The notes beneath the pieces are model-generated. The model saw only the letters and a list, made by a program, of their open reading frames with translations, searched no databases and was not told the DNA's origin. Source: a virus. Taken from it: a stretch of 30,272 nt of DNA. Shown here piece by piece: positions 310-28,513 of this stretch (the stretch's first letter is position 1; the number at the start of each line of letters is the position of its first letter). A program made the translations under genes and the position numbers. The stretch covers positions 1 through 30,272 of the IMG/VR virus record IMGVR_UViG_3300044730_000681. One strand, 5' to 3'.

Positions 310-2184
310 ATGCCAACTAACGACTGGGAGGCAAACCCCAATGGGCAAACTTACGTACAAAGGATTGGTGCCGCGGGACGATCCGATGTTCTCGACTGGG
401 CCAGAAGTGTTCTCGCGCCTCGGGTCCAGCGAGTCTTCGAGGACTTCGCCGAAAAGTACCAGTGGGGAGACCCCGGCCGAATCCAGTTCAGCAACCGAGG
501 CGGATCTGATGCAGCCGGCGGTGGACGCGATCGAGGAGTGGGGCCGCAAGACGTTCAAGCGGTAACCCCTTCCTACGGCACCCCTCGAGAGAGCGCCGCT
601 TCCGCGGTCGCCTACCACTACAGCACCCAGCCCCGCACGACCCTCGACAGCGTGATGTATGGCACCGGCCTGCGCGGGGCCGAGATGGCGCGCCTGCAGG
701 GCGCAGATCCGCGCCTGAAGCAGCGCGTCTACTTCTACATCGATCGCGGCACTGGCATCAATCCTGAGGCCGGCGTGGGCGGCCAGGCTCACCGCGTTAA
801 TCTGCAAAACCTGTACGACGTCGACGAGGACGCGCTGCGTCTGCGCCGCGACAACGAGGCCTTCAACGACTTCGAGTCTGCGGTCATCGACGCCGGCTTC
901 GACGGCTACATGGTGCGCGACGCCGGGCCGTCAGGCAACGCGGTGCTGCTGGGTCGGCACGCCGTGCCCGTCGAGCAGCTCGGCGCTCGCAGCCGCATGG
1001 CAGGCGAGCCTGTCGCACCGGCCCGCGAGCGAGTGCTGAGCGACGCTGAGAAGATCTCGGCCAACAAGATGCTGCCGGCCGGGCAGGTGTCCGGCAAGCG
1101 CTGGGCGGAGCTCATCTCTCGCAGCATGCCGGAGGTCTACGAGCGCCTGGCTGGCAGCCCGGTGTGGCAGTCCGACAAGGTCATGTACCGAGGCGAGCTG
1201 GCTCGCGAGCTTCGCGCTCAGCCGATGTTCAGCAACCGCCAACTGCCGAAGGTCTCACCGCAGAGCGCGCTGGACGCGGACATCAAGGTTGCGTCGGAGA
1301 GCCTGCAGCGCTACATCCGGGCTGCAGAGCAGGGACGCCAGTTGCCCAAGCTCACGATCGGCCGCCTGCCCCATGTGCTCAACATGCTGGGCGCACGCAC
1401 GCAGGATTTCGACATCGCCACCAGCATTGTCACGAAGGTGTTTGTCAGGACCAAAGCAGAAAAAGGACACGCGGACGAGCTTCCCGACATCACGCCCAAG
1501 CAGCTCATCGAAGGCATCTACCGCCCGGCCATGGTGCTGAAGTCGAAGGACGGCAACCCCCGCGAGTTCGAGCTGGTGCTGCCGATCACCAGCGACAAGG
1601 GCGCGCTGATCGTCCCGATCAAGGTGTCGGTGGACAACACCGATCCGACGGGCGCGGTGTTGTCGATCTACGCCAAGGGCGTGTCGATCTCCGGCGGCAA
1701 GCCGAACGAGCAGGTGCTGATGAAACGCATCAACGACGGCAACCTGCTGTACCTGGACCCCGGCCTGGCCAAGCAGGCGCTGACTGGTCGCAAGGCTGGA
1801 GATCCTAAGGCTGACGTCAAGCTCAATGGCAACTTCGTGTCTTGGCCTGGGGTGTGGCCCAAGCTGGCGGAGATGATCTCTGCGCGCACGGTCAAGACCG
1901 ACATCAACCTAATGGGCTGGATCGGCAAATACTACACGCCGAGCTCGTCGCCGCAGGGCTGGGAGGATGCGCCCGCATTCAGCCAGCGCGCCCGCGCTGA
2001 GGACAAGGAAGTGGCCAGCCTGTTCCGCGATCTGCAAGATGCCCGCGGCCTTGGGCGCGTGCGTGCGCTCGAGCGGGTTGACGCGCACCCGATGGCTGAG
2101 ACAATCCGCCGCATCGACCAAGAGTTCATGGACATACTGGAGCGGCTCGACGACGCCGGCCTGGTGAAGATCAACTGCAAGTGA
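310..2184 (+). CDS. Polyvalent phage protein, ART-like plus MuF-C nuclease-like
   Basis: A 624-residue protein of the large polyvalent type, thought to be packaged in the virion and delivered to the host. Residues ~102-225 (start AYHYST, then YGTGLRGAE and RVYFYID) resemble an ADP-ribosyltransferase-like polyvalent domain. Residues ~345-490 resemble the MuF C-terminal domain, a BECR-fold putative RNase: a GRLPHVLNMLGA start, a LPDITP segment, a beta-rich core with SIYAKG, and NLLYLD at the end. The motif FS[NQ]R occurs near residues 60, 307 and 557, at apparent domain edges. The gene runs into the ferritin-like gene 9 bp later. The start is uncertain: ATG 310 has no clear Shine-Dalgarno, and between ~480 and 565 the other plus frame has better third-position GC, so a frameshift or a separate small gene is possible. 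Domain calls are by eye. Confidence 0.7.
   Translation: MPTNDWEANPNGQTYVQRIGAAGRSDVLDWARSVLAPRVQRVFEDFAEKYQWGDPGRIQFSNRGGSDAAGGGRDRGVGPQDVQAVTPSYGTPRESAASAVAYHYSTQPRTTLDSVMYGTGLRGAEMARLQGADPRLKQRVYFYIDRGTGINPEAGVGGQAHRVNLQNLYDVDEDALRLRRDNEAFNDFESAVIDAGFDGYMVRDAGPSGNAVLLGRHAVPVEQLGARSRMAGEPVAPARERVLSDAEKISANKMLPAGQVSGKRWAELISRSMPEVYERLAGSPVWQSDKVMYRGELARELRAQPMFSNRQLPKVSPQSALDADIKVASESLQRYIRAAEQGRQLPKLTIGRLPHVLNMLGARTQDFDIATSIVTKVFVRTKAEKGHADELPDITPKQLIEGIYRPAMVLKSKDGNPREFELVLPITSDKGALIVPIKVSVDNTDPTGAVLSIYAKGVSISGGKPNEQVLMKRINDGNLLYLDPGLAKQALTGRKAGDPKADVKLNGNFVSWPGVWPKLAEMISARTVKTDINLMGWIGKYYTPSSSPQGWEDAPAFSQRARAEDKEVASLFRDLQDARGLGRVRALERVDAHPMAETIRRIDQEFMDILERLDDAGLVKINCK
341..565 (+). CDS. 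Possible small ORF overlapping start of polyvalent gene
   Basis: Read in the frame +1 to the polyvalent gene, ATG 341 has an excellent ribosome binding site (GGGAGG about 9 bases upstream), better than ATG 310. It encodes 74 residues, beginning MGKLTYKGLVPRDDPMFS and ending in a likely helix. Its last ~25 codons end almost always in G or C, typical of this genome, whereas the middle is serine/threonine-rich and less gene-like. It may be a real small gene, or the true N-terminus of the polyvalent protein joined by a frameshift near 490-570 (programmed or an assembly error). I cannot decide between these. Confidence 0.3.
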   Translation: MGKLTYKGLVPRDDPMFSTGPEVFSRLGSSESSRTSPKSTSGETPAESSSATEADLMQPAVDAIEEWGRKTFKR

Positions 2185-2193
2185 GGTATCACA

Positions 2194-2685
2194 ATGCCTG
2201 TTTCCAATCTGCTCGACAAGCCCACCGAGGACATGCTGAACAAGGCTGTCCACGCCGAGCTCTACGCCTCGCACCTGTACAAGCACATCGCCAACCAGAT
2301 GCAGCGCGTCGGGTTCTTCGGCACACAGAAGTTCTTTGCCGGCGAGAGTGCTGACGAGCTCAAGCACTACCAGCTCATCGCCGACTACATGAACGACCGC
2401 GGCACCAGCGCGAAGGTGCCGGCGCTCGAGGCCTGCACTGAGGTGGTCACCGACATCGCCGACGCCATCGAGCTGGGCTACGAGACCGAGCTGCAGCTCA
2501 TGCGCGACTACGAGAAGTGGTATCGCGAGTGCAAGTGCGTGACGACCCAGCAGTTCATGCTGCAGTTCCTCGAGACCCAGCGCAAGAGCGTGGGTGAGTA
2601 CGGCGACCTGATGTCGCGCCTGGGCCTGGTGAGCGGCGACAAGGCGGGCATGTTGATGATGGACCAGGAGCTGGGCAATGGCTGA
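2194..2685 (+). CDS. Ferritin-like diiron protein
   Basis: A 163-residue protein that reads like a non-haem ferritin: helix A with HAELYASHLYKHIA, helix B with FFAGESADELKHYQ, a turn DYMNDRGTSAKVPALE, then helices C and D. By comparison with bacterial FtnA, E22, E55, H58, E99 and Q129 sit where the ferroxidase ligands are expected; the last ligand (FtnA Glu130) is less clear, E135 being the nearest. The length matches ferritins (~165). Ferritins oxidise and store iron as cages of 24. It lies between two polyvalent-protein genes and overlaps the second by 8 bp, so it is probably expressed late. The start is set by GAGG in a stop-RBS-start junction shared with 28511. Expression in the virion or an iron-scavenging role is inference. 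Confidence 0.82.
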   Translation: MPVSNLLDKPTEDMLNKAVHAELYASHLYKHIANQMQRVGFFGTQKFFAGESADELKHYQLIADYMNDRGTSAKVPALEACTEVVTDIADAIELGYETELQLMRDYEKWYRECKCVTTQQFMLQFLETQRKSVGEYGDLMSRLGLVSGDKAGMLMMDQELGNG

Positions 2686-5600
2686 TTGCACCTACACGTT
2701 CAAGACTGCGGAGGGCGAGGTCACCATCAAGGGGATGGCCGAAATGAAGGCCTTTCTCGCATTGAACGGTGTGGGTGCCATTGATGGCGCCAAGGCGCCT
2801 ATGTTCAGCCAGCGCGCTTTTCACGGTACACCGCACCGCGGCATCAACAAGTTCAGCACCGACAAGATCGGCACCGGCGAGGGAGCCCAGGCCTACGGCT
2901 GGGGGCTGTACTTCGCGGGGCGCAAGGAGATCGGGGAGTTTTATCGGTCGACTTTGGCGCCAAAGAACCCGCCGACTGAGGCGCAAATTCTTGCCGACCC
3001 TGCTGTCGTCGCGGCGCAAGCCCGTGTTGACGCCGCTGGCGAAGAACTCGACAGGCTGGGCACCGACAATCAGCAAGCTGTCGCGGAGTGGACAGCGGCA
3101 AACGACGCCCTGTACTCCGCGCGCAAGAGTGTCAAGGGCGGACAACTCTACGAGGTCGAGATCCCCGAGGACAGCGAGATGCTGCTGTGGGACAAGCCGC
3201 TGAGTGAGCAGCCGGAGGCGGTGCGGGCGGCCGTTGACAAGCTATTTGAAAACGGGGCACTGGACGACGGCTCCAAAAAGCTCATTGAGTCGCAAGGCAT
3301 GCGCCAAGATTTGAAGGGCAAGACCCTTTACGAACTGCTCGCGACATCAGACAACTTGGCCATCGACGGCACGGGCCGCGCCGCCAGTCTGGCGCTGGCC
3401 GAAGCGGGCATCAAGGGTATCAAGTATCTTGACGGCACCAGTCGCGACGCAGGCGGTGGCAGCTACAACTATGTGGTGTTCAGCGGCGACGATGTGGCAA
3501 TTCAGCAAGCCTTTTACAGCAAGCGCGCCCCGGTCGTCGGCTCTCGCTTCAAGCTGCCCGGGTCCACTGCGGTGGATGTCGGACGCATCAGGCTGCAGGA
3601 CGACGTGCTGCGCATGAAGCGCGTGATCGAGGCGGTCAAGCAGCAGGGCGGTACGGTCGGCGAGGCGCAGAACTTCTACGACGCCAACACCCTGATGCCC
3701 GGCCGCATCCAGGCTGAGATCGACGACTTCAAAGACAAGGTCGTCAGGCCCATGCTGGACAAGGCGGTCAAGTACGAGATCGACCTCGACGAGCTGTCGC
3801 TGTACTCCTACGCCAAGCACGCGGAAGAGCGCAACCAGTACATCGCCAGCATCAACCCTCGCATGCCCGACGGCGGCTCCGGCATGACGACGGCAGACGC
3901 GAAGGCCATCCTGCAGCAGGTGCAGGCCGGCGGTAAGGCGCAGCAGTTCGACGAGCTGCACAAGGACCTGATGTCCATCACGTCCACCACCCGGCTGCTG
4001 ATGCTGTCCGAGGGCCTGATCACGCAGGACGAGTTCGACTCCCTCGACGGTGCGTATGCCAATTACATCCCGCTGCGCGGCCTGGAGAACGTGGACGAGG
4101 GAGGGCGTGCGCGCCCTGGCGTCGGCCGCGGTGTGAACGTCCGAGGTGGTGAGACCGTGCGGGCCATGGGCCGCCGCTCGCGCGCCAGCGACCTGATCGA
4201 GAACGTGATCCGCGACTACGAGCGGGTCATCACCCGCGTCGAGCGCAACGACGTCGGCAAGGTGCTGCTGGACTTTGTGCTGTCGAACCCTGACCCCGAC
4301 CTGTGGGGCGTGGACATCGAGCGCAACAAGCCCTCCTTCAACAAGGCCACGGGCCTGGTGCAGTACACCAAGCAGGTCGAGAAGGGCGAGGACACGATCG
4401 GCGTGAAGGTCGGCGGCCAGCAGGTCTACATCAAGCTGGTGGACAAGGACCTGACCCGGGCCCTGCGCCAGGCCTGGAAGGACGAGGTCAGCGGCCTGGA
4501 GCGCGCAGTGGTTGCGACCACCGGATGGTGGAACAACTGGATGCGCAACGTGCTGACCCGGTACAACCCTGCGTTCGCGGCCATCAACATCCCGCGCGAC
4601 GCCCTCTGGTCGGGCACCACAGCCGCTCTGGCAGAGCTTGGACCGAAGGGGCTGGTCAGGTACTTGGCAGCCTACGGAAAGGCCACCATGGCCTCAACGC
4701 GGGCCGAGGCGGGGGTGTCTGGCACGACCAATGTCATGTTCGGCAACCCGCAGATCGACAAGCTGTACCAGGAGTTCCGCGCAGCGGGCGGCATCACCGG
4801 CGGGTTCTACATGCGCGACCTGGACACCATCCAGCAGGAACTGCGCGACGAGATGCTGCTGGCCGGCGCAAAGGCGCGCAACCCATGGGAGATGGTCAAG
4901 ACTTTGCCGCCCTACAAGGCGGCCAAGCTGACCCTGCGAGGGCTGGAATTCCTCGGCTCGGCAAGCGAGAACGCGACCCGGTTCGCCCTGTTCATGGCGG
5001 CGAAGGAGTCCGGCAAGTCGTCTGCCCAGGCAGCCATCCTGGCCAAGGACGGTACGACCAACTTCAACCGCAAGGGTGAGTTCGGTGGCGTGCTGAACAA
5101 CATGTACCTGTTCTTTAACGCCGGTGTGCAGGGCACGACGCAGCTCGTCAAGGTGCTGCGCAGCCCGGCCGTGCAGGCGTCTATGGCAGGCGTGGCCGGC
5201 GTCGGCATGATGCTGGCCCTGTATGGTGCGGCCGGTGGCGGCGAGGACGAAGACGGCGAGAAGTACTGGGACAAGATCCCCAGCTACGTCAAAGAGCGCA
5301 ACCTGGTGATCATGCTGTCACCAGGTGAGCCATTGGCCGACGGTATCCAGCGCGTGGGCAAGCGCGGCCGGTACATCACGATCCCGGTGCAGTACGGCTT
5401 CAACATCTTCCCCAACATGGGGTACATGATGGCCGACGTGTTCCGCAACTCAGAGGACCCCAAGCGTGGCGTGACGCCGACCAAGGCTGCGCTGCACATG
5501 ACCTCGGTCATCTTCGGCTCGGTCAACCCCTTCGGTGGTTCGGTGGACGTGAGCGACGGCGTGCAGGTGCTTCTGGCGGCCTCCCCCACACTGGTCGACC

Positions 5601-6358
5601 TGCCGATCCAGATCATCAACGAGCGCGGTACGTTTGGCCGCCCGTCTGCGCCAATGGCTTGGGATCGCCGGCCGGACTCCGAGCGCATGTTCGCCTCGCA
5701 GCAGGGCACCGTGCCTGCCAAGATCGCCAAGACGCTCAACGAGCTGGGCGGTGGCGACGAGGCCAAGGCCGGCAGCATTCTGGGCATCGAGACATCGATT
5801 ACGCCAGGCACCATCGACACGCTCATCCGCGGCACCACCGGCGGCCTGGGGGCGTTCGTCGAGCAGACGGCCACCTCGGTGTCTGCCATGGCAGGCGACA
5901 AGGACATCAAGGCCGGCAAGGTGCCGTTCCTCAACAAGTTCTACGGCGAGGTGGACGAGGACGCCAACATCCGTTCAGCCGGCGAGCGCATGCGCGAGGT
6001 CAAGCGCGTTGTCAACGAGGACAAGGATCGGAAGAGATTTGAGAAAACTCAGTCGGAAGAAAAGTCGACTGCTGTCGATCGCATGACTGCTGTTCGGGAC
6101 CTTGTTGACGCTGTTTCCACGGATCTTGATTCAGACCTCAAGATGCAAGACGGCGAAGCCAAACTGCTTGCGCTAGCAAAGACCCAAAAGGGTTACGAGA
6201 AGGCGCAGACGGAAATGCGCAAGCTGGAGATTTCTTTGGTGAGCGACGATTCGCTGACAGACGCAGAGAAAAGGCTGTATCGCCAGCGCATCCAGGCTGA
6301 GCGGGATAGGCTGGCGACCAAGGTCAACAAGGCGTATCTCAATCTGCCCGGTCAGTGA
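2678..6358 (+). CDS. Large polyvalent protein, ART-like N-terminus and LPD38-like body
   Basis: A 1226-residue protein. A short N-terminal segment (1-41) is followed by the junction motif MFSQR (42-46) and an ADP-ribosyltransferase-like domain (~47-275) with FHGTPHRGINKFSTDKIG and QAYGWGLYFAG, typical of ART domains in phage polyvalent proteins. A second junction motif, YSKR (280-283), precedes a long helical region. Residues ~610-900 (GWWNNWMRNVLTRYNPAFA, NNMYLFFNAGVQGTTQL, KIPSYVKERNLVI) resemble the LPD38 polyvalent domain; ~832-854 is a glycine/alanine-rich hydrophobic stretch that could cross a membrane. The C-terminus (~1080-1220) is charged and likely coiled coil. Such proteins are thought to be ejected with the DNA. 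Host-protein modification is known for the domain class, not shown here. The gene end overlaps the convergent gene by 20 bp. Confidence 0.8.
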   Translation: MADCTYTFKTAEGEVTIKGMAEMKAFLALNGVGAIDGAKAPMFSQRAFHGTPHRGINKFSTDKIGTGEGAQAYGWGLYFAGRKEIGEFYRSTLAPKNPPTEAQILADPAVVAAQARVDAAGEELDRLGTDNQQAVAEWTAANDALYSARKSVKGGQLYEVEIPEDSEMLLWDKPLSEQPEAVRAAVDKLFENGALDDGSKKLIESQGMRQDLKGKTLYELLATSDNLAIDGTGRAASLALAEAGIKGIKYLDGTSRDAGGGSYNYVVFSGDDVAIQQAFYSKRAPVVGSRFKLPGSTAVDVGRIRLQDDVLRMKRVIEAVKQQGGTVGEAQNFYDANTLMPGRIQAEIDDFKDKVVRPMLDKAVKYEIDLDELSLYSYAKHAEERNQYIASINPRMPDGGSGMTTADAKAILQQVQAGGKAQQFDELHKDLMSITSTTRLLMLSEGLITQDEFDSLDGAYANYIPLRGLENVDEGGRARPGVGRGVNVRGGETVRAMGRRSRASDLIENVIRDYERVITRVERNDVGKVLLDFVLSNPDPDLWGVDIERNKPSFNKATGLVQYTKQVEKGEDTIGVKVGGQQVYIKLVDKDLTRALRQAWKDEVSGLERAVVATTGWWNNWMRNVLTRYNPAFAAINIPRDALWSGTTAALAELGPKGLVRYLAAYGKATMASTRAEAGVSGTTNVMFGNPQIDKLYQEFRAAGGITGGFYMRDLDTIQQELRDEMLLAGAKARNPWEMVKTLPPYKAAKLTLRGLEFLGSASENATRFALFMAAKESGKSSAQAAILAKDGTTNFNRKGEFGGVLNNMYLFFNAGVQGTTQLVKVLRSPAVQASMAGVAGVGMMLALYGAAGGGEDEDGEKYWDKIPSYVKERNLVIMLSPGEPLADGIQRVGKRGRYITIPVQYGFNIFPNMGYMMADVFRNSEDPKRGVTPTKAALHMTSVIFGSVNPFGGSVDVSDGVQVLLAASPTLVDLPIQIINERGTFGRPSAPMAWDRRPDSERMFASQQGTVPAKIAKTLNELGGGDEAKAGSILGIETSITPGTIDTLIRGTTGGLGAFVEQTATSVSAMAGDKDIKAGKVPFLNKFYGEVDEDANIRSAGERMREVKRVVNEDKDRKRFEKTQSEEKSTAVDRMTAVRDLVDAVSTDLDSDLKMQDGEAKLLALAKTQKGYEKAQTEMRKLEISLVSDDSLTDAEKRLYRQRIQAERDRLATKVNKAYLNLPGQ

Positions 6359-8310: not shown

Positions 8311-9923
8311 ACTGATGCCGCACCTTCTGTCCACTGATGAGAGACGATGGTCGGGTACTTGCCGGATCGGTTGACGATCACGGATACCGGCCTGCGCAAG
8401 ATCTGGTCGTCGTACTCCAGCCACTCAATAGCCTGCTCAGAGTCGGCTGGTATCGCATCGATCTTGGCTCGCATCTCCCACCAGGACTCGGCCTTTTTGC
8501 GTGCGTAGCCGTCATGGCTGAGGCACACCCACTCGCGGACCGCGCACATCATCACGTCGTAGTACTCGACGAGCAGGCTGTTTTCGCTGCCGGGCTTGCG
8601 ATGCAGTCGATACCGCACATCGGTCACAGTGACCACTTCAAACGAGCTGCGCTGCTGGCTGAGGATCGCCGCGCTTGATGCTTCAATGCCGTGCTTGATG
8701 CGCTCGGGCTCCGGGAACTTGAAGTTGCAGTCGACGCACTGCGTCGCGGCCGCCAGGTTCTTGCTGCCGCAATTAGGGCACAGCTTGCTGGGCGCCTCGC
8801 CCTTGCGCTTGGTGCTGGGCATGCGTCCTTTGACCTCGTCGACCGGGCCCATCTCGATCGTGGTGTCGGTGAAGTCGGCCCACAGGCAGTCGGTCTTCCC
8901 GTCGGCGATCCGCATCCCGCGGCCGGCGATCTGGACGTACAGCACCGGGCTCTTGGTGGCGCGCAGCAGCGCGATGAAGTCCACCTCCGGGACGTCGAAA
9001 CCTGTGGTCAGCACGGCCACGTTCACCAGGCAGCGGATCCTGCCCCCGCGGAAGGCCGCAATCAGGGCTGCACGCTCTTGTTTCGGGGTCTCCGAACTCA
9101 CCACCTCAGCCGCCACTCCGCGGCGCTGTAGCGCGTCCCTGACGTGCTCGGCGTGGGCGATCGTCACGGCAAACACCAGCCACCGCTTGCGGGCGCGGGC
9201 GAGCTCGACGATCTCCTTGCAGGTGGCCTCCACGAGGCCGGGCCTGTCGGTGACCTTGGCCAGCTCGCTGACGACGTAGTCATCGCCCGACATCCGCACG
9301 TCCCGTGCGTCCACCCTGGCCACGGTCGGGGCTGGCACCAGGGGAGACAGGAACTTCAAGCCCAGCAGTTCCTTCATCGTCACCCTAGTGGCGACGTTGG
9401 TGAACAGCGGCTCTTCTCCGGCCGTGGCCCACACGCCGTTGCCGCGGAATGGGGTTCCTGTCCAGCCGATCACGCGGGTGTGCGGGTTGTACTTGGTCAG
9501 GTCAGCCAAGAATGTGCGCCACATCCCAGTCTGTTTTGGGTTGATCAGGTGGCACTCGTCGGCCAGCACGATGTCGATGCGGCCGAGGCGGTGCGCCTGC
9601 TTGTAGATGCTGCCGATCGTGGCGTAGGTGAGCTGGTGACCCATCTGCTTCTTGCCGATGGCCGCCGAGTACAGGCCCACGTCCGCGGTCGGCCAGATGC
9701 GGACCAGCTTGTCGATGTTCTGCTCGAGCAGCTCCTTCTGGTGGACCAGCACCAGCACCCTGGTGCCCGGGTGTTCGGCGTCAGCGCGCTGCGCCAGGGC
9801 CGCGATCATCAGGCTCTTGCCGGCACCGACGCAGGCCTCGACGATGGGGTTGCCGCCCTCGTGCCTGCCGAACCACATCCAGAGCTCGTCAAGCGCCCGG
9901 GTCTGGTAGTCGCGCAGCTTCAT
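8307..9923 (-). CDS. Superfamily 2 DEAD/DEAH helicase with zinc ribbon
   Basis: A 538-residue helicase. Motif I (GAGKS) is at ~34-38, motif II as DECH at ~126, motif III TGTPFRG at ~154, and motif VI as QIAGRGMR at ~335, so both RecA-like domains are complete. A CPNC...CVDC zinc ribbon follows at ~385-402 and a C-terminal domain of ~130 residues after it. It resembles phage UvsW/RecG-neighbouring SF2 helicases that act on replication forks or recombination intermediates. The gene overlaps the exonuclease gene upstream by 4 bp, suggesting the two proteins are made together. Confidence 0.9.
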   Translation of the reverse strand: MKLRDYQTRALDELWMWFGRHEGGNPIVEACVGAGKSLMIAALAQRADAEHPGTRVLVLVHQKELLEQNIDKLVRIWPTADVGLYSAAIGKKQMGHQLTYATIGSIYKQAHRLGRIDIVLADECHLINPKQTGMWRTFLADLTKYNPHTRVIGWTGTPFRGNGVWATAGEEPLFTNVATRVTMKELLGLKFLSPLVPAPTVARVDARDVRMSGDDYVVSELAKVTDRPGLVEATCKEIVELARARKRWLVFAVTIAHAEHVRDALQRRGVAAEVVSSETPKQERAALIAAFRGGRIRCLVNVAVLTTGFDVPEVDFIALLRATKSPVLYVQIAGRGMRIADGKTDCLWADFTDTTIEMGPVDEVKGRMPSTKRKGEAPSKLCPNCGSKNLAAATQCVDCNFKFPEPERIKHGIEASSAAILSQQRSSFEVVTVTDVRYRLHRKPGSENSLLVEYYDVMMCAVREWVCLSHDGYARKKAESWWEMRAKIDAIPADSEQAIEWLEYDDQILRRPVSVIVNRSGKYPTIVSHQWTEGAASV

Positions 9924-10975
9924 GCCACGACCCTCGCCGTGGTGATGCCGTGCGCTCGCAGCGCGGCCGTCATGGCCGCCGCATCGGCGAGCATCTCCTT
10001 CTGCTTGCAGGCCTTGATCTCCAGCGAGCTCAGCGCGCCGTCGCCCTGGCCGTTGGCGAATGTGCCGTGCTTTTGCTCGTACACGACATCACCATTGACA
10101 TAGTCCTTCTGCGTCGCGAAGCGCTCGAGCAGGATGGGGATGTAGCGGTGCGTGCTGCACTGGTGCGACTCGCGCTGGGCGATCAGGCCCACCTGGCCAA
10201 ACTCTTTGCAGTCCCACCCGCCGTCCTCGCCATCGACCACGGGCGTGCTGTGCGCGCAGGTGCGGCAGTTGACGTCTGGCGCCTCCTCGCCGTGGCACAG
10301 GCTGTGGAAGTCGCACATCTTGCAGACGTACCAGCTCGGGTCGTTTGAGCAGCGAAGCGGTGGCTCGGCCGCAGTGATCACGCGCTCGGCGCGGGCCATG
10401 ATCTTGGCGAACTCGACCTCGTCGAAGTGGACCCATTCAGCATAGAGCTCGCTGGTGTCCTTGTTCTCCGCGATGTACATGGCGCGGGCCATGCCGGTCA
10501 TGCCCATGTAGGTTTGCATCTGAGCCCAGTGCTGCGGCTTGGACTTCTGCACGCCATCCTTCAGGGCCGCGAACGACTTCGCGTTGTGCGTCTTGAACTC
10601 GACGACGGCCCAGGACTTGGGCGCCTCGGGGAAGCCTCGTGCGGCGCCGTCCATGCTGCCTCCGAAGTGACCGCCGACAGCGGACACGCGCCACTGCTTG
10701 CCGTCGGGCGCGGTCTCGTGGACCTCGACTCCGATGCGGCGCAGCTCGGCCACGATGCGGGGCTCGAAGTCCTGGCCCGCCTTGAACAGGCGCAGCATGC
10801 GGCCTGAATGCTTCTTTGATCCGGCCCAGCGGAAGGTCAGCCACAGGTAGCGCTCGCAGGTGTGGCCGATCAGGGATGCGCCCAGGTGCGGGCGGTGGCC
10901 GTCGTCTGCGTCGGACTCGTAGGACCGGTAGATCGTCGCGACGGTCGTGTGTATAGGTTCGGGCACTGTGGCCAT
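9920..10975 (-). CDS. PD-(D/E)XK exonuclease with Cas4/AddB-type iron-sulfur cysteines
   Basis: A 351-residue nuclease. Catalytic residues are visible as GGSMDG (metal-binding Asp, ~110) and VVEFKTHN (E-x-K, ~127). One cysteine near the N-terminus (C40, in GHTCERYLW) and three later (C218-x2-C221-x5-C227, in CKMCDFHSLC) match the four-cysteine arrangement that holds a 4Fe-4S cluster in Cas4, AddB and related RecB-family nucleases. A second cysteine group (VNCRTC, WDCKEF, HQC) follows at ~235-275. It probably resects DNA ends for the ATPase and DUF669 protein encoded upstream in the same operon. Cluster binding is inference from spacing. Confidence 0.85.
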   Translation of the reverse strand: MATVPEPIHTTVATIYRSYESDADDGHRPHLGASLIGHTCERYLWLTFRWAGSKKHSGRMLRLFKAGQDFEPRIVAELRRIGVEVHETAPDGKQWRVSAVGGHFGGSMDGAARGFPEAPKSWAVVEFKTHNAKSFAALKDGVQKSKPQHWAQMQTYMGMTGMARAMYIAENKDTSELYAEWVHFDEVEFAKIMARAERVITAAEPPLRCSNDPSWYVCKMCDFHSLCHGEEAPDVNCRTCAHSTPVVDGEDGGWDCKEFGQVGLIAQRESHQCSTHRYIPILLERFATQKDYVNGDVVYEQKHGTFANGQGDGALSSLEIKACKQKEMLADAAAMTAALRAHGITTARVVA

Positions 10976-24209: not shown

Positions 24210-24236
24210 CCGCCCCGGGTAAGTGTCTCCAAATCC

Positions 24237-24259
24237 AGCCGGCCGCGAGCCGGCTTTTT
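24237..24259 (+). terminator. Intrinsic terminator just downstream of late promoter
   Basis: A perfect 7-bp GC-rich stem AGCCGGC / GCCGGCT (24237-24243 and 24249-24255), 5-base loop, followed by TTTTT (24255-24259) and TTT a little further on. It points in the plus direction and lies between the promoter at 24180 and the first late gene, so read-through would be needed for late transcription. Confidence 0.8.
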
Positions 24260-24288
24260 GCTTTCTGAGCCCGGGTGAGCTGAACGCG

Positions 24289-24816
24289 GTGACCTCGTCT
24301 CCCACTGCTGGATGCCTCCCGGGTTCAACCCCTGATGCCGTGGACAAAGCTGAATACCAACGAATCGCCGATGAACGTGAGGCCACCAAGCACCATGTGC
24401 TGGCCATGGCCGAAGACATCTTCGAGCGCTACATGGCGGGTGAGTCCATGCGCCTGATCGCCGAGTCGATGCCGTTCAAGATCAGCGGCAACCGCCTGCG
24501 CGACATCCTGCTGAACAACCCCGACACCCGGGAAGCCTACGCCGACATCCACATCCACCGCTCGCACAGCCTCGTCGAGGCCGCGGTGGACTACGCCCGC
24601 GAGGCGGGGATGCTGGGCGATGCGGCCGGCCTGCGGGTGGCGATCGACGCCAACCTCAAGGTGGCGGCCAAGATCAACGGCCGCGACTACGGCGACAAGT
24701 CCAAGGTGGAGCTCACCGGCAAGGACGGAGGGCCCGTCAAGATGGTGGCCCTGACCGACGAGCAGCTCATGGAGATCGCCGCCCAAGGCGTGGTGAAGGG
24801 GGCGGCAGGTGCTTGA
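24289..24816 (+). CDS. Terminase small subunit
   Basis: A 175-residue protein in the position of the small terminase, overlapping the large terminase by 8 bp. The N-terminal half has a likely helix-turn-helix (GESMRLIAESMPFKISGNRLRDILL), in keeping with DNA binding at the packaging site; the middle is coiled coil-like and the C-terminus carries KVELTGKDGGPVKMVALTDEQL. The reading continues upstream to 24223, through the terminator, so I prefer GTG 24289 (GGTGAG upstream); GTG 24340 is the next choice. Confidence 0.8.
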   Translation: MTSSPTAGCLPGSTPDAVDKAEYQRIADEREATKHHVLAMAEDIFERYMAGESMRLIAESMPFKISGNRLRDILLNNPDTREAYADIHIHRSHSLVEAAVDYAREAGMLGDAAGLRVAIDANLKVAAKINGRDYGDKSKVELTGKDGGPVKMVALTDEQLMEIAAQGVVKGAAGA

Positions 24817-26305
24817 TCCATCGCAGGCTGCGGCTGAGCTGCTGGCGCGCAAGAAGGCGCGCGAGTCGTTCTCGCACTACTGCGCCTACCGACTGCCAGA
24901 CGACATGCGCCTGGCCGAGCACCACGTCCTGCTGACCGAGGCCCTGGACAAGATTGAGAAGGGCGAGATCGACCGGCTGCTCGTGATGATGCCGCCAGGC
25001 TCTGCCAAGTCCACCTACGGCTCGGTCTACTTCCCCGAGTACTTCGCAGGCCGCAACCCGCAGCTCAGCGTCATCGCCGCTTCGCACACCGCAGAACTGG
25101 CCGAGCGCTTCGGCCGCCGGGTGCGCAACGGCGTGGACGACGAGCAGTTTCGCGCCCTGTTCCCGCAGGTGGCGCTGGCCGCCGACAGCACGGCTGCTGG
25201 CCGATGGGGCACGAACCACGGCGGCGAGTACACCGCGGTGGGCGTGGGCGGATCCATCACCGGGCGACGCGGCGACCTGATCGTGGTCGACGACCCAGTG
25301 CGCAGTCGCGAGGACGCCGACTCCGAGCGCGTGCGCGAGAAGACCTGGGAGTGGTGGACCAACGACCTGCTGACCCGCTTGAAGCCTCATGGCCGCGTGG
25401 TGGTCATCATGACCCGCTGGCACGAGGATGACCTGGCCGGCCGCCTGCTCGAGCGTGAGCCGCAGCGGTGGACCGTCATCAAGCTGCCGATGATCGCTGG
25501 CGACAACGACCTGCTGGGACGCAAATCAGGTGAGCGCCTGTGGAAAGAGTGGTTCACCGACGAGATGGTGCGCCAGGCGCAGTCCGATCCACGCTCGTGG
25601 ATCTCGCTGTACCAGCAGGAGCCCAGGCCCGTCGAGGGTGCGGAGTTCAAGCGCTCGTGGATCGTGCGCTACAACAACGCGCCCAAGAAGATGAACAGGG
25701 TCATCCTGGTCGACCCGGCGGGTGACCCGCAGACGGCCAAGGAAGGCACCAAGCGCAAGCGCAGCGACCGCACCGTGATGTGGGTCGTGGGCCTGGCGCA
25801 CGACGGCAACGCCTTCCTCGTGGACGGCATCATCGATCGGCTGACGCTGACGCAACGCGCCGATGCGCTGTTCGCCCTGCACAAGAAGCACAAGCCGATG
25901 CAGGTGCGCTACGAGCGCTACGGCATGCAGGCCGACATCCCGCACATCCAGGCCGAGATGGAGCGGCGCCAGTACCGCTTCAAGATCACCGAGGTGGCTG
26001 GTGCGGTGGAGAAGAACGCCCGCATCCGCAGGCTCATTCCGTGGTTCGAGGGCGGCCGCATGTGGCTGCCTCAGCAGCTCAACTACACTGACGTGCAGGG
26101 CAACCCGCATGACTTGGTTCAGGAGCTCCTCGAGGTCGAGTACGCCACCTTCCCGGTGGGTCGATTCGACGACGGCATGGACTGCCTGGCCCGCATCGAC
26201 GAGCCTTCGCTGACTCTGCCGTGGCCGGACGAAGAGGAAGAGTGGGAAGTCCCCCGGGGCGCCGAGGCTGCGTGGCAGGTCCTCGACGAAGTGACCGGCT
26301 ACTAA
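24809..26305 (+). CDS. Terminase large subunit
   Basis: A 498-residue packaging motor. Walker A lies at ~60-68 (MPPGSAKST), Walker B at ~157-163 (LIVVDDP). A C-terminal RNase H-like nuclease follows with acidic residues in VILVDPAGD (~298), in VRYERYG and in RFDDGMDCLARI (~455). These proteins cut and translocate phage DNA into the head. GTG is the start; the overlap with the small subunit is 8 bp. Confidence 0.92.
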   Translation: MLDPSQAAAELLARKKARESFSHYCAYRLPDDMRLAEHHVLLTEALDKIEKGEIDRLLVMMPPGSAKSTYGSVYFPEYFAGRNPQLSVIAASHTAELAERFGRRVRNGVDDEQFRALFPQVALAADSTAAGRWGTNHGGEYTAVGVGGSITGRRGDLIVVDDPVRSREDADSERVREKTWEWWTNDLLTRLKPHGRVVVIMTRWHEDDLAGRLLEREPQRWTVIKLPMIAGDNDLLGRKSGERLWKEWFTDEMVRQAQSDPRSWISLYQQEPRPVEGAEFKRSWIVRYNNAPKKMNRVILVDPAGDPQTAKEGTKRKRSDRTVMWVVGLAHDGNAFLVDGIIDRLTLTQRADALFALHKKHKPMQVRYERYGMQADIPHIQAEMERRQYRFKITEVAGAVEKNARIRRLIPWFEGGRMWLPQQLNYTDVQGNPHDLVQELLEVEYATFPVGRFDDGMDCLARIDEPSLTLPWPDEEEEWEVPRGAEAAWQVLDEVTGY

Positions 26306-26314
26306 AGGATCACG

Positions 26315-28513
26315 ATGGACCCCAAAGACCTACCGACCGACGTTGCCTACATGGTTGGCGACGAGGTGCTGACCCAGGAAGAGTTCGAAGGCCGCCAGAA
26401 GGGCGAGATCGAGCGCCTGTACGCCGTCTTCGCCAAAATGCGCGACCATTGGGTTCAGGGGCGAGCCACCAACACTGACCTTGAAAAGCGCTGGCGCAAG
26501 AACGCGCAGCTCTACTTCGGCGAGCACACCAACAGCACCGGCGAGTTCGAGAACACCCTGCGCAACGGCCCGCCATCACGCAAGGCGCAGGACGGCACCC
26601 GCTCGAGGGTGGTGATCAACATCGTGCGCCCGAAGGTCGACCAGGCCGTGGCGCGCATGTGCGAGATCCTGTTCCCCGTGGACGACCGCAACTGGGGCAT
26701 CCGGCCCACGCCGATGCCTGAGCTGGCCGACATGATGGGCAGCAACGCCCAGACCGTCGACCCGGCCACTGGCCAGCCCACCGGCTTCACCGCCAACGAG
26801 GAAGCCAACGCGATCATGGAGGCTGCCAAGCAGGCGGCTGAGGCCATGGAGCGCTCCATCGACGACAGCCTGACCGAGTCCAAGTACAACGGCGAGAGTC
26901 GCAAGGGCATTGAGGATGCCGTGCGTCTGGGCACGATGGTGCTGTACGGCCCGTTCCCTGCACGTCAGACCAGCAAGGTCTGGCTGCCTCAGGGCGACGG
27001 CACGCAGCAACTGCAGATCAACGAGTCGATCGTCCCGGCCAGCATGCGCATGGACCCGTGGGACTGCTTCTTCGACCCGAGCTGCGGCAACGACCACCAG
27101 GCCGGCCGCGGGTTCTTCATGCGCCGCATGGTCACTCGCAAGCAACTGCGCCAGCTCGTGGGCCTGCCCGGCTACGACGAGGACGCCATCCGCGAGGTGC
27201 TGCGCTCGCCGCCGCAGAAGCTGCGCGTGGCCGAGGGCCGGGTCATCCGCGACATGATGAACGAGGACGCCTACGAAATGTGGACGTACCACGGCGAGAT
27301 CGAGCCCGAAGAGATGGAGATGCTTTCGAGCCGCACGGGCGACCCGCTGACCGACGTGGACTTCGGCGTGCTCGTGATCGTCAACGACAAGGTCGTGGGT
27401 GCAATGGAGTCGTGGGTTGTGGACCGCACGCTGCCGGTGGACGTCTACTGCTGGCGCAAGGCAGACGACAGCCCGTTCGGCTATGGCCTGCCCGACGAGC
27501 TTGAGCACCAGCAGCGAGTGGTCAACAGCGCCTGGCGCCAGGTGATGGACAACGGCCGCACCTCGCTGGGCGGACAGATCGTCATCAAGAAGGGCATGAT
27601 CATTCCGCAGAACGGAAGCTACGAGATCACGCCCAACAAGATCTGGCTGGCCAAGGACGAGCTCGACGACGTGCGTGCTGCCATGACGGTGTTCGAGTTC
27701 AACTCGCACCTGCAGGAGCTGCTGGCCATCGCCCAAGCCGCCATGCAGTTCGCAGACACCGAGTCCAGCATGCCCCAGATCATGGGCGGCGAGCAGGGCA
27801 GCGCGCCCGAGACCGTCGGCGGCATGGTCATGCTGTACAACAACGCCAACGCTGTGCTGCGCCAGCGCGTGAAGCTGTACGACGACAGCATCACCAGGCC
27901 ACACATCGGTCGGTACTACGACTGGAAGATGGCCAACGACCCGGATCCAAAGATCAAGGGCGACTACGAGATCGACGCACGCGGGTCGACTGCGCTGATC
28001 GAGCGCGACATCCAGAACCAGGCCCTGCTGAACCTGGCCAACATCACCAACAACCCGCGCTACATCCCGCACCTCAAGGAGCGCGAGGAGCTCAAGGCGA
28101 TCCTCAAAGCGTTCAAGGTCAACCCCGAGGAGCTGCTCAAGCCTGAGGACCAGGTCAAGCAGGAGATGGAAGCGCAGGCTCAGCAGGGCGCGCCGCAGGA
28201 TCCTCGCATTGCGGCCGCTCAGATCAAGGCCGAGGTCGACATGGCCAAGATCGCGGACAACAAGGAAGTCCGCGCCCAGCAGGGCCAGCAGATCGAGTAC
28301 AACCGCCAGCGCGAGCAGGCAGAGTACGAGATCGCGATGACAGAGGCCGGCATCGAGCGCGACCTGTCGCTGACCAAGCTCGGCCAGGACGCCCAGCTCA
28401 CCCGCGAGCAGATCGCCGCGAAGGAGCGTCTCGAGGCACTGAAAATTGACAACCAGCGTCAGATCTTCAACGCCGAGGCGGCGCTGCGCGTCAACACGGG
28501 CGCCGGCATCTGA
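26315..28513 (+). CDS. Portal protein (P22-like)
   Basis: A 732-residue protein, close to the length of P22 portal (725). The N-terminal half contains RVVINIVRPKVDQAVARMCEILFPVDDRNWGIRP, typical of large-podovirus portals; the middle has YGLPDELEHQQRVVNSAWRQVMDN and GGEQGSAPETVGGMVMLYNN, typical of the same proteins. Residues ~590-720 are a long glutamine/glutamate-rich helical tail, similar to the barrel helices of P22 portal. It forms the ring through which DNA enters the head. It follows the terminase by 9 bp. Confidence 0.88.
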   Translation: MDPKDLPTDVAYMVGDEVLTQEEFEGRQKGEIERLYAVFAKMRDHWVQGRATNTDLEKRWRKNAQLYFGEHTNSTGEFENTLRNGPPSRKAQDGTRSRVVINIVRPKVDQAVARMCEILFPVDDRNWGIRPTPMPELADMMGSNAQTVDPATGQPTGFTANEEANAIMEAAKQAAEAMERSIDDSLTESKYNGESRKGIEDAVRLGTMVLYGPFPARQTSKVWLPQGDGTQQLQINESIVPASMRMDPWDCFFDPSCGNDHQAGRGFFMRRMVTRKQLRQLVGLPGYDEDAIREVLRSPPQKLRVAEGRVIRDMMNEDAYEMWTYHGEIEPEEMEMLSSRTGDPLTDVDFGVLVIVNDKVVGAMESWVVDRTLPVDVYCWRKADDSPFGYGLPDELEHQQRVVNSAWRQVMDNGRTSLGGQIVIKKGMIIPQNGSYEITPNKIWLAKDELDDVRAAMTVFEFNSHLQELLAIAQAAMQFADTESSMPQIMGGEQGSAPETVGGMVMLYNNANAVLRQRVKLYDDSITRPHIGRYYDWKMANDPDPKIKGDYEIDARGSTALIERDIQNQALLNLANITNNPRYIPHLKEREELKAILKAFKVNPEELLKPEDQVKQEMEAQAQQGAPQDPRIAAAQIKAEVDMAKIADNKEVRAQQGQQIEYNRQREQAEYEIAMTEAGIERDLSLTKLGQDAQLTREQIAAKERLEALKIDNQRQIFNAEAALRVNTGAGI

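What the first reader, a model, noticed from the sequence alone, without database searches (positions are those of the whole stretch)
2194..2685. Ferritin-like gene among virion-type polyvalent genes
The protein keeps most of the ferroxidase ligands and the helix pattern of a bacterial ferritin. It is nested with 8-9 bp junctions between two large proteins of a kind thought to be injected. A phage iron-storage cage could detoxify iron/peroxide in the host, supply iron to the Fe-S exonuclease of the same phage, or be carried in the virion.
Basis: partly seen in the sequence, partly recalled or inferred. Interest (0 to 1): 0.75.

Follow-up and report, generated by a model that had tools for sequence, protein, structure and literature searches.

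The report
Virus-specific ferritin in phage virion operon
Many uncultured bacterial viruses carry their own iron-oxidising ferritin, nearly always placed among the genes that build the virus head or make the giant proteins thought to be injected into the host, which suggests that the iron protein travels in or helps build the virus particle.

Summary
Window 2194-2685 encodes a true non-haem ferritin: Pfam Ferritin E=2e-19, five-helix AlphaFold2 model (pLDDT 91), TM 0.9 to solved ferritins. All first-shell ligands of an H-type ferroxidase centre (E22, E55, H58, E99, Q129) are invariant in 27 diverse homologues; dN/dS is 0.03-0.28. It belongs to a virus-specific clade: at least 126 IMG/VR matches, 3 in 85,000 cellular genomes (small MAG contigs, probably phage), and none among 50,697 GenBank phage records.

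In about 80 loci the gene lies between two giant ORFs, each carrying a conserved ferritin-facing end: a ~55-aa C-terminal tail ending in Cys, and a ~40-aa N-terminal head with Cys near residue 4. These giants are otherwise nearly cysteine-free: 3 non-terminal Cys in 204,000 aa, yet 67 of 67 pairs have both terminal ones. In other lineages the same ferritin follows the portal or MuF gene instead.

Best reading: a ferroxidase-active ferritin made with, and probably packaged with, head or ejection proteins, limiting iron/peroxide damage at assembly or entry. Packaging and function are inferred, not shown. The Cys pair is unexplained.

The parts
2194..2685 (+). ferritin, 163 aa, five helices (A 9-39, B 42-68, C 88-112, D 116-146, E 150-162)
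   Evidence: Pfam PF00210 2.2e-19; AlphaFold2 pLDDT 90.8; Foldseek TM 0.92 to E. coli FtnA 1eum
2257..2259 (+). ferroxidase ligand E22 (human H E27, FtnA E17)
   Evidence: invariant 27/27
2356..2358 (+). ferroxidase ligand E55 (bridging; human H E62, FtnA E50)
   Evidence: invariant 27/27
2365..2367 (+). ferroxidase ligand H58 (human H H65, FtnA H53)
   Evidence: invariant 27/27
2488..2490 (+). ferroxidase ligand E99 (human H E107, FtnA E94)
   Evidence: invariant 27/27
2578..2580 (+). ferroxidase ligand Q129 (human H Q141, FtnA Q127); S132 stands where human H has A144 and FtnA has E130
   Evidence: invariant 27/27; S/A at 132 in 27/27
310..2184 (+). C-terminal fragment of the upstream giant protein (about 2,855 aa in L002), with a sub-threshold MuF_C match
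   Evidence: 99.5% DNA identity to L002 from window base 308 on; MuF_C 3.5e-4, below cut-off
2017..2181 (+). conserved C-terminal tail of the upstream giant, ending ...INCK
   Evidence: 60 distinct tails aligned; ferritin-blind search: 57 of 57 loci have ferritin sequence next to the tail
2176..2178 (+). codon of the only Cys of the upstream giant (residue -2)
   Evidence: both TGC and TGT used among homologues
2678..6358 (+). downstream giant, 1226 aa, with LPD38 domain (residues 863-1085)
   Evidence: PF18857 2.2e-23; phrog_14770 5.8e-142
2678..2788 (+). conserved N-terminal head of the downstream giant (MxxCTYxF...G..A.KAFL)
   Evidence: 64 distinct heads aligned; 40 of 41 loci found by it have ferritin directly upstream, the other is cut by the contig end
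2687..2689 (+). codon of the only Cys of the downstream giant (residue 4)
24223..26305 (+). terminase small (Sf6-like) and large subunits
   Evidence: PF20901 1.9e-8; PF03237 and phrog_38 4.5e-106
26315..28513 (+). portal / head-tail protein
   Evidence: phrog_332 2.7e-46, phrog_1216 3.3e-7

Best explanation
The gene encodes a ferroxidase-active ferritin subunit of a virus-specific subfamily. It is translated together with head or ejection proteins and most likely becomes part of the particle-assembly or ejection complex. Shown by sequence: ferritin fold, complete H-type di-iron site, purifying selection, tight junctions that imply translational coupling, and repeated placement beside portal, MuF or giant ejection-type genes. 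Inferred: (a) it assembles as a ferritin cage or sub-assembly; (b) it is held with the two giants, whose ferritin-facing ends are conserved only in ferritin loci; (c) it enters the head, and subunits, not the intact cage, may leave with the DNA; (d) its work is to oxidise Fe2+ and so keep Fenton chemistry away from the packaged or entering DNA and its protein escort. Rough step probabilities: active ferroxidase 0.9, cage 0.75, particle-associated 0.55, protective role 0.4.
For: Fold and ligands. Virus-specific clade, separated from 11 cellular-type ferritins by a branch of 2.3 changes per site, support 100/99. Context in about 80 loci: giant - ferritin - giant with tight junctions. Tail and head co-occur with ferritin in ferritin-blind searches, 57/57 and 40/41, and are absent from the giants of ferritin-less phages. 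In other lineages ferritin follows the portal gene (L041, L031, L051, L109) or overlaps MuF (L050). In the near-complete relative G001 one strand runs from terminase to LPD38 with ferritin inside that run. Purifying selection. LPD38 is reported only from phage-type polyvalent proteins, a class argued to be packaged and injected (PMC5512222).
Against: No proteomics or structure of any virion with this protein. The giants themselves are only inferred to be virion proteins. Late-operon position alone would also fit a soluble late protein. L048 has GroES, not a head gene, directly upstream. A 24-mer cage (about 12 nm, own knowledge) is far wider than a ~35 A tail channel (N4, PMC12633501), so injection as a cage is not possible.
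Confidence: 0.5

Rival explanations
1. Auxiliary gene: a soluble ferritin made late in infection that lowers free iron and peroxide in the infected cell and protects replicating DNA. It sits in the late operon only for high expression and is not packaged.
For: Phage Dps and Mn-catalase genes are already read this way (PMC8008677); the ferroxidase site is intact.
Against: Stress genes acquired as extras usually wander; this one keeps to portal, MuF or giant neighbours in unrelated phages, with conserved flanking protein ends.
Confidence: 0.3
2. Structural part: the ferritin oligomer is a scaffold or core that organises ejection proteins or the portal vertex; iron chemistry is secondary.
For: Neighbours are portal, MuF, neck and giant ejection-type proteins.
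Against: A pure scaffold need not keep all five metal ligands in sequences of 42-45% identity.
Confidence: 0.12
3. A neutral hitchhiker: an acquired bacterial ferritin that merely sits in a tolerant gap.
For: None beyond the fact that ferritin is a cellular family.
Against: dN/dS 0.03-0.28, long separate clade, invariant ligands, no close cellular relative in 85,000 species genomes.
Confidence: 0.03

Closest known systems
Non-haem ferritins (PF00210; Archaeoglobus fulgidus ferritin 1s3q, E. coli FtnA 1eum, human H ferritin)
   Same: Five-helix fold including helix E; ferroxidase ligands E, E/H, E, Q in the same places; the conserved Tyr (Y29 = human Y34).
   Different: Only about 20% identity; lacks the bacterial third-iron C-site (FtnA E126, E129, E130 are mostly I/T, K/T, S/A), so the centre is H/M-type; the aligned human 3-fold channel Asp is Gln.
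Phage Dps-like proteins and Mn-catalases (Lactobacillus phages, 'Gratiaviridae', PMC8008677)
   Same: Ferritin superfamily enzymes in phage genomes, read as iron/peroxide protection.
   Different: Different families; read there as cytosolic protection; not reported there as tied to portal, MuF or giant ejection-type genes.
Encapsulins with ferritin-like cargo (EncFtn, IMEF)
   Same: A ferritin-like iron oxidase associated with an HK97-type shell; encapsulin shells have the viral HK97 fold (PMC8346489).
   Different: Here the genome is a phage's; the protein is a classical five-helix ferritin with no conserved C-terminal targeting extension; packaging is not shown.
Phage polyvalent / LPD38 proteins, DarB-like giants, N4 vRNAP
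   Same: Flanking giants share LPD38 and mosaic modules with phrog_14770, 616, 10691 and DarB-like phrog_10089; almost no cysteine.
   Different: In MW202426 and Vibrio phage 252E42.2 the LPD38 giant is one chain of over 3,000 aa with no ferritin beside it, no Cys, and no tail/head cassette.
Ferrojan Horse hypothesis; 'ferritin' gp217 of Vi01-like phage Sajous1 (PMC10892097)
   Same: Proposes iron in phage particles.
   Different: That call is a Phyre match covering about 22% of the protein, in tail context; not shown to be this family.

Membership tests
Non-haem ferritin (PF00210) | Four-helix bundle plus short helix E | tested here: met
   AlphaFold2 helices 9-39, 42-68, 88-112, 116-146, 150-162; TM 0.92 to 1eum
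Non-haem ferritin (PF00210) | Intrasubunit ferroxidase di-iron ligands | tested here: met
   E22, E55, H58, E99, Q129 invariant in 27
Non-haem ferritin (PF00210) | 24-subunit cage with iron core | not testable with these tools
   needs biochemistry; helix E, typical of 24-mers, is present
Bacterial FtnA-type ferritin | Third-iron C-site (E49, E126, E129, E130) | tested here: not met
   aligned residues D54, T128, K131, S132; NCBIfam FtnA model scores 32.7 against a cut-off of 178
Dps | 12-mer, inter-subunit ferroxidase site, no helix E | tested here: not met
   intrasubunit ligands and helix E present
Encapsulated ferritin (EncFtn) | Two-helix subunit of about 100 aa with C-terminal encapsulation peptide | tested here: not met
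   163 aa, five helices, chain ends just after helix E
Phage virion protein | Present in purified particles | not testable with these tools
   only genomic context available
Polyvalent / LPD38 phage protein (downstream neighbour) | LPD38 domain above curated cut-off | tested here: met
   83.8 bits against 27
MuF-C protein (upstream neighbour) | MuF_C domain above curated cut-off | tested here: inconclusive
   21.1 and 19.1 bits against 27.6

The most novel reading that the evidence does not exclude
The cassette is a redox-linked device: the two otherwise cysteine-free giants are joined end to end through their single terminal cysteines (disulfide or iron-thiolate), rebuilding one ejectable chain, and the ferritin encoded exactly between them supplies the iron-driven oxidation or the iron. 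The link would open in the reducing host cytoplasm after entry.
Probability: 0.17. Interest if true: 0.88.

Novelty: new variant of a known kind. Interest (0 to 1): 0.72.

Why it matters
Ferritins in phages have been treated as rare auxiliary genes. Here is a long-diverged, virus-only ferritin clade with an intact ferroxidase site, held among head and ejection-type genes in several unrelated phage lineages and missing from the GenBank phage records searched. If packaged, it would give a concrete protein for iron in phage particles and a natural parallel to encapsulins, which combine a phage-type shell with ferritin-like cargo. The single terminal cysteines of the two giants also give a sharp, cheap test of how giant ejection-type proteins are joined and released.

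Tried and rejected
Ferritin fused to another domain: all ~97 viral copies examined are stand-alone chains of about 161-171 aa, apart from copies cut by a contig end. Covalent bond from the giants' cysteines to ferritin: rejected, because about half of the distinct ferritins in split loci have no Cys in the matched region, L087, L098 and L106 among them, and the window's own Cys are not conserved. Conserved terminal Cys as a DNA-level artefact (ribosome site): disfavoured, since both TGC and TGT occur and the Cys codon lies outside the Shine-Dalgarno-like stretch. The three GenBank phage records with a ferritin (MT838721, MT836766, MT839617): they group with cellular ferritins and are marked UNVERIFIED. 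Structure of the upstream giant's last 270 residues: model too poor to use (pLDDT 37). The first tail-profile scan failed for lack of conserved blocks and was repeated with closer sequences. Paper searches found no report of a ferritin tied to portal or MuF genes.

Full report
What is there. Window 2194-2685 (+) encodes a 163-aa protein, 9 bp after the stop of one large ORF and overlapping the start of the next by 8 nt. It is a ferritin: Pfam PF00210 E=2.2e-19, solved ferritins by sequence, an AlphaFold2 model with five helices at mean pLDDT 90.8, and Foldseek TM 0.91-0.93 to archaeal and bacterial non-haem ferritins.

Active site. Aligned with E. coli FtnA and human H ferritin (both sequences checked against PDB entries), the phage protein has E22, E55, H58, E99 and Q129, the complete first shell of the ferroxidase centre, plus the conserved Tyr (Y29). 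All six are invariant in 27 homologues chosen for diversity. The bacterial C-site glutamates are gone: E126, E129 and E130 become mostly I/T, K/T and S/A. Position 132 is Ser or Ala, as in H/M-type ferritins. Pairwise dN/dS is 0.03-0.28.

Who has it. Profile scans of IMG/VR gave 126 confirmed matches (80 kept), identity to the window down to 42-45%. The scan of one genome per species for 84,980 prokaryotes found only three matches, all on 6-8 kb MAG contigs; two show the same giant-ferritin-giant cassette and the third holds the ferritin end and the downstream giant. In 50,697 GenBank phage records the only three hits are 22-25% identical, UNVERIFIED, and group with cellular ferritins. In a maximum-likelihood tree the viral copies form one side of a branch of 2.3 changes per site, support 100/99, against 11 cellular-type sequences; the sampling of cellular ferritins was small, so the nearest cellular relative is not settled.

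Main context. In about 80 loci the ferritin lies between two large ORFs, the upstream one mostly 1,500-3,000 aa where complete, the downstream one mostly 850-2,000 aa. The window's downstream giant has LPD38 (2e-23) and matches phage giants. The bodies of the giants are mosaic: parts of L002's upstream giant match the downstream giant of L038. What stays constant is next to the ferritin: a ~55-aa C-terminal tail ending INCK/INCD or C, and a ~40-aa N-terminal head beginning MxxCTYxF. Ferritin-blind scans with the tail and the head returned 57 and 41 loci; ferritin sequence is adjacent in 57 and 40 of them (one of the 57, L186, has only an inverted partial copy at a contig end), and the missing one starts at the contig edge. 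These scans were seeded from ferritin loci, so close relatives were expected to share it. The tail and head are not found in the giants of ferritin-less relatives MW202426, Vibrio phage 252E42.2 or Limnohabitans phage DC33; in the first two the LPD38-type giant is a single chain.

Cysteines. Across 67 distinct giant pairs, every upstream chain has a Cys in its last three residues and every downstream chain a Cys in its first ten (mostly residues 3-5), while the remaining 204,000 residues hold three Cys in all. Many of these chains are related, so the 67 are not independent. Single-chain giants of ferritin-less phages have zero (two cases) or one. Elsewhere in these loci 6 of 258 ORFs have Cys in the last four residues and none has the head motif. 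Both Cys codons are used, so selection is on the residue. About half of the distinct ferritins in these loci have no Cys in the matched region, so a bond to ferritin is unlikely; a bond or shared metal between the two giants is the simplest idea, not tested.

Other contexts. The same clade sits after terminase-portal (L041), after a portal-like ORF with a scaffold-like gene next (L031; the upstream gene there is assigned by position only), directly after portal (L051) or one small ORF after it (L109), overlapping MuF after a Mu-type portal and before a neck protein (L050), and next to a GroES-like gene with a virion structural protein further on (L048). The label 'portal/MuF' needs at least two changes on the tree. 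Terminases differ: only two of 16 ferritin-bearing records, one of them by a 41-residue end piece, have a relative of the window's terminase. In the 57.9-kb relative G001, whose ends overlap, one strand runs terminase, portal, tail fibre, giant, ferritin, LPD38 giant, with most of the remaining genes on the other strand.

Interpretation. The best-supported account is a ferroxidase-active ferritin made with, and likely built into, the head or ejection apparatus, protecting DNA and escort proteins from iron/peroxide chemistry. Packaging is inferred from position; the polyvalent-protein paper argues that such giants are packaged and injected (PMC5512222), and P1 DarA/Hdf are shown inside the head (PMC12810830). 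An intact cage could not pass a ~35 A channel (PMC12633501), so it would leave as subunits or stay behind. The main rival is a soluble late protein with an auxiliary role, as proposed for phage Dps and catalase (PMC8008677).

Novelty. Ferritin is known, and ferritin-superfamily genes in phages are known. A virus-only ferritin clade tied to portal/MuF/ejection-type genes, with a two-cysteine cassette at giant-protein ends, was not found in the papers searched.

Noticed in passing
1-307: These bases match none of the close relatives, while 308 onward matches L002 at 99.5%; the contig end looks chimeric and truncates the upstream giant.
   Followed up: yes
310-6358 and ~67 related loci: Giant ejection-type proteins almost free of cysteine except one at each ferritin-facing terminus; other virion-strand genes of G001 (676, 938, 965, 394 aa) also have none.
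   Followed up: partly
9920-10975 (-): PD-(D/E)XK nuclease with C40 and C218-x2-C221-x5-C227, the layout of a Cas4/AddB-type Fe-S cluster.
   Followed up: partly
L048 9126-9989: GroES-like domain at the C-terminus of a 287-aa phage protein overlapping the ferritin ORF.
   Followed up: no
BFVD entries A0A6J7XDU5, A0A6J7WPK9, A0A6J7WIS1: Proteins named prohead protease from uncultured phages give weak fold matches to the ferritin model; possible Dps/ferritin-like domains fused to head proteases.
   Followed up: no
MT838721, MT836766, MT839617 (L065-L067): UNVERIFIED GenBank phage records carrying cellular-type ferritins; likely bacterial sequence.
   Followed up: partly
L009 about 8874-9780: Roughly 900 bp in the upstream giant, at the place matching window base ~1980, absent from the window: an example of module insertion in the giant.
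   Followed up: no
L186 3365-3541: Ferritin fragment in reverse orientation just after a tail at the contig end; probably an assembly fold-back.
   Followed up: no
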